Shown here piece by piece: positions 57,914 to 59,191 of a stretch of 64,000 bases of DNA. Positions within the stretch are counted from its first letter, which is position 1, and each line of letters begins with the position of its first letter. A model generated the notes under the pieces. It had not been told where the DNA came from and did not search any database. It saw only the letters and a program-made list of their open reading frames with translations. Position numbers and translations under genes: made by a program. This DNA is from Lentinus brumalis (taxonomy: Eukaryota > Basidiomycota > Agaricomycetes > Polyporales > Polyporaceae). The stretch spans positions 2,976,001 through 3,040,000 of the forward strand of contig MARA01000001.1 in assembly GCA_001792895.1 (NCBI GenBank). Direction: 5' to 3'.

Positions 57914-59191
57914 ATGAAAGCATCCTTCTGCGCACTCGCTTCTCTCCTCCTCGCCGCCAGTTCGGTATCTGCCAGGACCGTGTTCTCGGTATGCTCCCCG
58001 CCGCCTAATTGGCACGGGGGTGTCTGACTTACGCTGCAATGCACACAGGCGATTCAAGTCGACGGCGTCGAGCTCGGTCACGGCGTCGCTGTCCGGGTAC
58101 CTTCCGCCAACGCCGTAAGTGTTTGTGCAAGCACGGCTACGTGGCGCCGCTGGTACTCACCACCGCATGTGTCCTCTCCGCTCACATAGCCCGTCACGGA
58201 CATCACCTCGAAGAACCTCATCTGCAACAGCGGGTTCGTCCAACCCGTGTCCGACGTCGTCGCGTCCGTGCCCGCTGGAGGCGTCGTCTCTGCCGAGTTC
58301 CACCACACGTCCGCTGGCTACGTCGGCCCTGACCCTGCTGACCCGCTGGACCCAACGAACAAGGGTGCGTTGTGTTGTGTGCATTCAGCGCGAGCATGTC
58401 GGCTGAACAGCTGTATACTCATCCCCAAGGCCCCGTCCTGGCTTATCTGTGAGTTGCGACACAGCATACACCGAGGGTTCCCTTCTCTGACACGCACTCA
58501 CCTGCAGCGCGGCGGTCCCTGACGCCACGCAGGAGGACGTGACTGGTCTGAAGTGGTTCAAGGTCAGCCACCTTCCACTCTACAAGACGTTAGCCACAGA
58601 GCCGCAGTGCTGATAGACTCCCATATTAGATCTTTGAGCAAGGACTGAACCCGCAGACGCACCAGTGGGCCTCCGACCTCCTCTTCATCAACGAAGGATA
58701 CGTCAACATCACCATCCCGTCCTGCGTCAAGGCCGGCCAGTACCTCCTTCGAGTAGAGAGCATCTGTCAGTCTGCTGTCCTATTCCCCAAAGAATTCACG
58801 GGATCTGACACACACCTGCACTGTCACTAGCGCTCTCATCCGCATCCCAGTACCCTGGCGCACAGTTCTTCGTGAGTGTGCTCCGGCGAGACGGATGACC
58901 CCAGCTGACCGAAGGCCTCCAGATGAGCTGCGCTCAACTTGAGGTGACCGGAGGCGGCCACGCAAGCCCGGAGACGGTCAGCTTCCCCGGAGCGTACACT
59001 GGTGAGTGCAGCCCGACACGACTGTGCGGACAGTCTCTGACTGCTGTGTTCAGCGACGGACCCTGGTATCGTGACCAACATCTACGCAGTCGAGACCTAC
59101 ACACCTCCTGGTAAGTTGCCTCATTGCTCGGAAGGCTGATCAAACTTGCTCACCATGCACGCCTCCAGGACCTGCGGTGTTCGAGTGCTAG
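57914..59191 (+). CDS. AA9-like protein with N-terminal Arg (Arg-AA9), probably not an LPMO, 241 aa
   Basis: Secreted paralogue of the preceding AA9. Exons 57914-57988, 58049-58114, 58190-58364, 58430-58448, 58508-58562, 58630-58765, 58831-58871, 58923-59001, 59054-59110, 59169-59191. Signal peptide MKASFCALASLLLAASSVSA, then Arg (RTVFS) where AA9 enzymes have the copper-binding His1. The second His is kept (AEFHHT) but the axial Tyr is Phe (GAQFFMSCAQL). The fold-defining Cys and the TGLKWFKI, IPSCVKAGQYLLRVES and FPGAYTATDPG strands are intact, so the fold is kept while the histidine brace is lost. There is no CBM1. AA9 homologues with N-terminal Arg are known in basidiomycetes; their role is unsettled. 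Confidence 0.93.

What the first reader, a model, noticed from the sequence alone, without database searches (positions are those of the whole stretch)
57914..59191. AA9 paralogue that lost the copper brace: Arg at residue 1 and Phe at the axial position
Two of the three or four copper-site positions are changed (His1 to Arg, Tyr to Phe) while the fold is kept and the promoter is strong. It cannot be an ordinary LPMO. Arg1 AA9 proteins are known from basidiomycetes, but function is open; here it sits beside its canonical partner, an ideal comparison.
Basis: partly seen in the sequence, partly recalled or inferred. Interest (0 to 1): 0.75.

Follow-up and report, generated by a model that had tools for sequence, protein, structure and literature searches.

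The report
Copper-less AA9 beside its active twin
A wood-rotting mushroom gene makes a secreted relative of a cellulose-cutting copper enzyme that has lost every copper-holding residue; the family was already known, but here it is found close to the same kind of working enzyme in many other mushrooms.

Summary
Gene B (57914-59191, +, ten exons) encodes a 241-aa AA9 protein. Its mature chain starts with Arg1, and it also has Asn84 where the second brace His belongs, Ser158 for the second-sphere His and Phe169 for the axial Tyr; of the five site positions only Gln167 is kept. It is an orthologue of LsAA9B (PDB 6RS6-9, 74% identical) and fits the 2012 description of HiGH61G, so the kind is known.

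Added here: 76 brace-less rows form one clade. Residue 1 is Arg, Lys, Asn, Gly or Ser, and the axial residue is Phe in 42, Tyr in 34. Nearly fixed instead are Ser5, Asn26, Tyr71, Gly73, Ser125, Ser171 and an N-glycosylation sequon at 132-138 (74 of 76, against 4 of 136 canonical rows). In 29 of 41 species with both kinds listed, a brace-less and a canonical AA9 share a contig. A VPS37-type gene lies upstream of the pair; gene models of two other species join such a gene to a canonical AA9.

Most likely it is a secreted, non-oxidising polysaccharide-binding pseudoenzyme that works on lignocellulose alongside the copper LPMO next door. Binding and cooperation are inferred.

The parts
57914..59191 (+). 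gene B: brace-less AA9 (Arg-AA9), ten exons: 57914-57988, 58049-58114, 58190-58364, 58430-58448, 58508-58562, 58630-58765, 58831-58871, 58923-59001, 59054-59110, 59169-59191; 241 aa
   Evidence: spliced translation without internal stop; Pfam AA9 1.1e-52; 163 of 221 positions identical to LsAA9B, PDB 6rs6 best match
57914..57973 (+). signal peptide (20 residues), followed directly by Arg1
   Evidence: read, no predictor run; orthologue crystal sequence starts at the same Arg
57974..57976 (+). codon of Arg1, in place of the N-terminal copper His
58358..58360 (+). codon of Asn84, in place of the second brace His (S-H-K-G-P to T-N-K-G-P)
   Evidence: never His in 76 brace-less rows (the canonical set is defined by His here)
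58836..58838 (+). codon of Ser158, in place of the second-sphere His
58869..58871 (+). codon of Phe169, in place of the axial Tyr
58301..58364 (+). rewritten loop, mature residues 65-85 (H-H-T-S-A-G-Y-V-G-P-D-P...T-N-K)
   Evidence: Tyr71, Gly73, Pro74 and Thr83 are conserved in the clade and rare in canonical AA9s; part of it is of low confidence in the model
58705..58707 (+). Asn136 of an N-I-T glycosylation sequon; a sequon at 132-138 occurs in 74 of 76 brace-less and 4 of 136 canonical rows
57857..57862 (+). TATAAA box of gene B
55803..57353 (+). gene A: canonical partner AA9 (His1, His87, His160, Gln169, Tyr171) with C-terminal CBM1, eleven exons, 314 aa
   Evidence: Pfam AA9 3.9e-65 and CBM_1 5.4e-13; 100% identical to P0122 of Polyporus arcularius HHB13444
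54824..55153 (+). open frame with the end of a Mod(r)/VPS37-type gene upstream of gene A
   Evidence: Pfam PF07200 3.9e-14; such a domain is joined to a canonical AA9 in two predicted proteins of other species

Best explanation
Gene B is a brace-less AA9 of the LsAA9B/HiGH61G family: a secreted, probably N-glycosylated AA9-fold pseudoenzyme without a copper site. It probably arose by one ancient local duplication of a CBM1-bearing AA9, lost the CBM1 and the copper ligands on the stem of the clade, and has been kept since. It most likely works by binding plant polysaccharide with the reshaped flat face (rewritten 64-84 loop, retained Tyr211) without oxidising it, during wood decay and alongside the copper LPMO of the neighbouring gene. 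Shown here: gene structure, loss of all ligand positions, single clade, clade-specific conserved residues and sequon, shared contigs. Taken from papers: induction on wood or straw in related fungi. Inferred: polysaccharide binding, cooperation with the neighbour, glycan occupancy, tandem duplication.
Against: No binding or activity datum was obtained here; the LsAA9B paper is not in the library. Linkage does not prove cooperation: canonical AA9 paralogues of one species also share a contig in 7 of 13 pairs, and the two kinds are on different contigs in 12 of 41 species. In H. irregulare only the CBM1-bearing AA9s, not HiGH61G, were clearly up on pure cellulose, so the pair is not co-regulated in every condition. 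The brace-less protein differs about 1.5 times more between species than its partner, so constraint is weaker. Residue 206 Tyr, 97% in canonical rows, is only 45% Tyr in the clade, so the face is not simply kept.
Confidence: 0.6

Rival explanations
1. It is an enzyme with a new, copper-independent activity in the old active-site area (polar residues Arg/Lys1, Asn/Asp84, Ser5, Ser125, Ser171).
For: Clade-specific conserved Ser5, Asn26, Ser125 and Ser171. Alternation along the strands suggests that residues 1/3/5 and 167/169/171 face the old metal site, so the pocket may be rebuilt rather than merely emptied (inference; no distances could be measured).
Against: Residues 1 and 84, the most central positions, vary (R/K/N/G/S and N/D/E/K/S), which is unusual for a catalytic centre. 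All 45 structure matches at E 0.001 or better are AA9 or AA11; that does not exclude a new activity.
Confidence: 0.12
2. It is a dedicated non-catalytic partner subunit of the neighbouring copper AA9: it binds that enzyme, or the substrate directly beside it, and steers or protects it.
For: Shared contigs in Polyporales, Agaricales and Russulales (one linked species of each order looked up, Cerrena, Infundibulicybe, Amylostereum, the rest recalled); same order in a joined Psilocybe cyanescens gene model; co-induction of the pair on spruce wood in H. irregulare. Non-basic residue 1 occurs in 3 of 12 unlinked and 0 of 29 linked species, Fisher p 0.02, although those three belong to one lineage (recalled) and so are not independent.
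Against: No complex was modelled or measured; Mycena species keep the gene on another contig than the listed canonical rows; tandem AA9s are common anyway; no joint rise on pure cellulose in H. irregulare; Asn1 also occurs in Cytidiella, Bondarzewia and an unnamed row whose linkage could not be tested.
Confidence: 0.2
3. It is a decaying gene copy without function.
For: Active-site loss, greater divergence than the partner.
Against: Intact splice sites and frame; one clade with nearly fixed clade-specific residues in at least four orders; high transcription of relatives in wood and straw.
Confidence: 0.03
4. It is still a copper or other metal protein through different ligands.
For: The N-terminal amine, His65/His66 and acidic residues exist; not excluded by computation.
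Against: His1 and His84 are gone in all 76 rows and His158 in 74; His66 is Arg or Lys in 37% of the clade; [quoted passage not shown]
Confidence: 0.05

Closest known systems
LsAA9B of Lentinus (Panus) similis, PDB 6RS6-6RS9
   Same: Arg1, Asn84, Gln167, Phe169, same length of 221, fold and T-N-K-G-P stretch, 74% identity
   Different: Residue 158 is Leu there and Ser here. The phosphorylated Ser25 reported for LsAA9B (PMC10354095 passage) is Ala25 in gene B. Sequons at 134 and 176 there, at 136 here.
HiGH61G of Heterobasidion irregulare (PMC3405238)
   Same: Same four positions changed; adjacent to a CBM1-bearing AA9 (HiGH61I) within 4 kb; strongly induced on wood
   Different: There the replacements are Arg, Glu, Gln, Phe by the discussion (the results section says Gln for the second His); here Arg, Asn, Ser, Phe. 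Its sequence was not compared directly.
AA9s with Lys in place of His1 (mentioned in PMC6950343)
   Same: Lys1 rows fall in the same clade here
   Different: Lys1 in place of Arg1; the sequences of that paper were not compared
Canonical CBM1-bearing AA9 LPMOs (gene A type, 'GH61 protein I')
   Same: AA9 domain, four conserved Cys, Tyr211, exons of 66, 19 and 41 nt in common; 56% identity of gene A to gene B (124 of 220)
   Different: Full histidine brace, CBM1, and almost never a sequon at 132-138

Membership tests
AA9 family by sequence and fold | AA9 domain profile and AA9 beta-sandwich fold | tested here: met
AA9 lytic polysaccharide monooxygenase (functional class) | Histidine brace: N-terminal His and second His | tested here: not met
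   Arg1 and Asn84
AA9 lytic polysaccharide monooxygenase (functional class) | Axial Tyr and second-sphere His/Gln | tested here: not met
   Phe169 and Ser158; Gln167 kept
AA9 lytic polysaccharide monooxygenase (functional class) | Copper-dependent oxidation of polysaccharide | not testable with these tools
   needs protein
Arg-AA9 / brace-less AA9 (LsAA9B group) | Arg replaces the N-terminal His of an AA9 | tested here: met
Arg-AA9 / brace-less AA9 (LsAA9B group) | Groups with LsAA9B in a tree without the copper-site columns | tested here: met
   same 100/100 clade, P0026 = LsAA9B
Arg-AA9 / brace-less AA9 (LsAA9B group) | Phosphorylated Ser25 near the N-terminus (reported for LsAA9B; not a defining feature by these data) | tested here: not met
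   Ala25 in gene B; column 25 is S 48, T 14, A 13 of 75 rows with a letter
Arg-AA9 / brace-less AA9 (LsAA9B group) | Secretion during lignocellulose degradation | not testable with these tools
   signal peptide present; transcription data for relatives only

The most novel reading that the evidence does not exclude
The canonical CBM1-AA9 and the brace-less AA9 are one inherited two-gene module (VPS37-type gene, copper LPMO, brace-less AA9, in that order on one strand). The brace-less protein would be the obligate non-catalytic accessory of its neighbour, and residue 1 loosens once the pair is broken up, as in the Mycena lineage.
Probability: 0.22. Interest if true: 0.72.

Novelty: new member of a known kind. 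Interest (0 to 1): 0.45.

Why it matters
The function of brace-less AA9s is open in the papers seen here. Recurrent linkage points to a specific partner to test, and the nearly fixed positions (64-84 loop, Ser5/125/171, sequon) point to where to look, rather than to Arg1. It also warns annotation: the L. brumalis orthologue was counted among LPMOs and cellulose-active enzymes kept up at day 15 (PMC6055342 passage), although by its sequence it cannot hold copper in the usual way.

Tried and rejected
Considered and rejected. (1) F-H-H-T as the second brace His: rejected, since the published NcAA9_D ligands His84 and Tyr168 (PMC5094447 table passage) fall on the S-H-K-G-P position, which is Asn here (alignment). 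(2) A different signal cleavage: rejected. (3) Repeated loss of the brace in many lineages: rejected, one clade. (4) P0112 of Coprinopsis as an intermediate: it groups next to the brace-less clade but is a long branch with His at 1 and 84; in each of six segments it is nearer on average to canonical rows; left open. (5) Shared promoter motif of genes A and B: one common 9-mer, and a TATA box in each, nothing to claim. (6) The motif survey of other AA9 loci of this genome was only partial because introns break motifs. That gene B is the only brace-less copy is likely but not proven locus by locus: other loci match gene B at 35-66% over short exons, and the two on contig C90 have canonical motifs.

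Not possible: dN/dS (no DNA of other species was reachable), distances in the model (coordinates not exposed; residues 95-98 of the model, in the rewritten loop, are under pLDDT 50), and reading Frandsen et al. 2019 (not held; its content is recalled, its title was seen in reference lists). The ten paper searches listed no paper that, from title and abstract start, reports this linkage across species; the key paper is not held, so this is no claim that it is unpublished. What was seen of papers: PMC3405238 section 12 and passages; PMC6055342 passages and part 1 of section 7; PMC10354095, PMC7949027, PMC6950343, PMC10486138, PMC5094447 and PMC7406137 passages only.

Rows and limits. The alignment has 220 rows: 218 proteins and genes A and B. 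P0066, P0086, P0113, P0118 (short) and P0121 (joined model) were left out of the tree and the conservation counts. P0194 and P0199 (gap at residue 1) and P0159 (gap at 84) are in neither the 76 nor the 136. The 76 include gene B and some odd-length models (P0060, P0063, P0064, P0068, P0095). P0086 and P0118 were kept in the linkage count. Of 65 species with a brace-less row 24 had no canonical row listed and were not tested for linkage. The divergence comparison used 27 of 30 linked pairs, the window's own included (left out: Desarmillaria ectypa, Leucoagaricus, Pholiota molesta). Lists are the best 120 of 267, 1537 and 501 hits. The six new ids are all canonical. The bootstrap had not fully settled.

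Full report
What is there. The window lies in a 53.4 Mb genome of 136 contigs. Gene A's protein is 100% identical over 314 aa to a Polyporus arcularius HHB13444 protein, so the window is that species or a very near one (Polyporales). Gene B at 57914-59191 splices through nine GT-AG introns into 241 codons. Gene A upstream, 55803-57353, splices into a canonical AA9 with CBM1. About 560 bp separate the two, on one strand.

Copper site.

One origin. With the five copper columns left out, 76 brace-less rows of 215 (gene B included) form one side of a branch (FastTree). A careful tree of 63 rows gives the clade 100/100 support and places it, rooted on Alternaria, inside the canonical, mostly CBM1-bearing AA9s (enclosing node 96/92). 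The stem is long (0.37) and the bootstrap had not fully settled, so the exact sister is open. No brace-less row has His at 1 or 84. A profile search adds no further brace-less member among its best 120 of 501 hits: the six new ids are canonical. The named brace-less rows are Agaricomycetes as far as I recall, save one partial row labelled Pseudoalteromonas (P0066), which looks mislabelled.

What is conserved instead. Residue 1: R 64%, K 24%, N 5%, G 5%, S 1%. Residue 84: N 76%, D 18%, E 3%, K and S 1% each. Axial residue: F 42, Y 34 of 76. By contrast Ser5 (96%), Asn26 (96%), Phe64 (99%), Ala69 (95%), Tyr71 (93%), Gly73 (97%), Thr83 (93%), Ser125 (99%) and Ser171 (97%) are nearly fixed in the clade; canonical rows have Gln5, Asp26, Trp64, Ala71, Val125 and Glu171 in 87-99%. 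The 64-84 stretch has the numbering of the L3 loop that contacts substrate in other AA9s according to PMC5094447 passages; the two were not aligned here, and part of this loop is below pLDDT 50 in the model. Tyr211 is kept in 99% of both groups, while Tyr206 is kept in 97% of canonical but 45% of brace-less rows; which of them is the flat-face aromatic I could not test. A sequon at 132-138 is present in 74 of 76 brace-less and 4 of 136 canonical rows. The phospho-Ser25 reported for LsAA9B (PMC10354095 passage) is Ala in gene B and in 13 of 75 rows with a letter there, so it cannot be essential to the whole family.

Rates. Over 27 of 30 linked gene pairs (351 comparisons between species, not independent), mean amino-acid difference is 0.317 for brace-less and 0.209 for the partner's catalytic domain, ratio 1.52; brace-less is the more divergent in 343 of 351. 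Constraint is weaker than on the enzyme, but the nearly fixed positions show that it exists. No codon test could be run.

Locus. Where both locus tags are printed, the numbers are next-door in six species (Cerrena zonata, Meripilus lineatus, Hohenbuehelia grisea, Trametes pubescens, Antrodiella citrinella, Agrocybe chaxingu) and 4 to 8 apart in two (Psilocybe cf. subviscida, Leucocoprinus leucothites; names); I assume that these tags run along the contig. A Psilocybe cyanescens gene model (P0121) joins a canonical CBM1-AA9 and a brace-less AA9 in the window's order. The control cuts the other way: canonical paralogues of one species share a contig in 7 of 13 pairs, so AA9 clustering is common. 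The difference is that this pair is one old split (56% identical in the window) still on one contig in species of Polyporales, Agaricales and Russulales (for one linked species each). The 12 species without a shared contig include six Mycena and Favolaschia. The open frame upstream of gene A carries a Mod(r)/VPS37 domain (PF07200, 3.9e-14). Predicted proteins of Leucocoprinus birnbaumii and Pyrrhoderma noxium run from a Mod(r) domain into a canonical AA9 in the same order, which looks like neighbouring genes joined by annotation. The canonical gene therefore seems to sit at an old, syntenic place, also in a Hymenochaetales species (order recalled) for which no brace-less row was listed.

Expression. 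No data for this strain. The L. brumalis orthologue P0001 carries the JGI number 1403153. PMC6055342 lists #1403153 among three LPMOs in the set still highly transcribed at day 15 on wheat straw (passage). That the two numbers mean one gene is inferred from their identity.

How it most likely works. No copper ligands, hence no oxygenase chemistry of the usual kind; retained fold, Tyr211, rewritten loop and a conserved glycan site; transcription with the wood-decay set in relatives. I commit to a secreted non-catalytic polysaccharide binder acting beside the copper LPMO (0.6). The dedicated-partner form is bolder and open (about 0.2).

Noticed in passing
database protein P0112 (Coprinopsis sp. 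MPI-PUGE-AT-0042): An AA9 with an intact brace but His at the axial Tyr position (H-H-H-Q-H) and Gly for Glu171, on a long branch next to the brace-less clade; possibly a three-His copper site.
   Followed up: partly
genome G000 contig C90, about 55400-57560 (loci L007, L008): Two further canonical AA9 genes close together, with S-H-K-G-P and A-L-H-A-A-S-S-Y-P-G-A-Q-F-Y-M-E-C motifs, 52-66% identical to gene B over single exons.
   Followed up: partly
window 54824-55153: VPS37-like Mod(r) gene upstream of the pair; such a domain is joined to a canonical AA9 in annotated proteins of Leucocoprinus birnbaumii and Pyrrhoderma noxium.
   Followed up: yes
window 59482-60638: Minus-strand glycosyltransferase family 2 gene downstream of gene B (PF00535, 7.3e-23 in the frame 59976-60638); by its look a dolichol-phosphate mannosyltransferase (recalled impression).
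   Followed up: partly
window 61324-62463: Long open frame of 379 aa without any Pfam match up to E 0.1; looks like an F-box/leucine-rich protein of the mushroom type (recalled impression).
   Followed up: no
database proteins P0175, P0178, P0194, P0201, P0218 (Mycena): Canonical-type AA9s of several Mycena species lack the second-sphere His in the alignment (gap or Asn at 158) while keeping the second brace His and the axial Tyr (His1 too in four; P0194 has a gap there); not checked for gene-model or alignment error.
   Followed up: no
database protein P0066: A partial brace-less AA9 labelled Pseudoalteromonas sp., probably a mislabelled fungal sequence.
   Followed up: no
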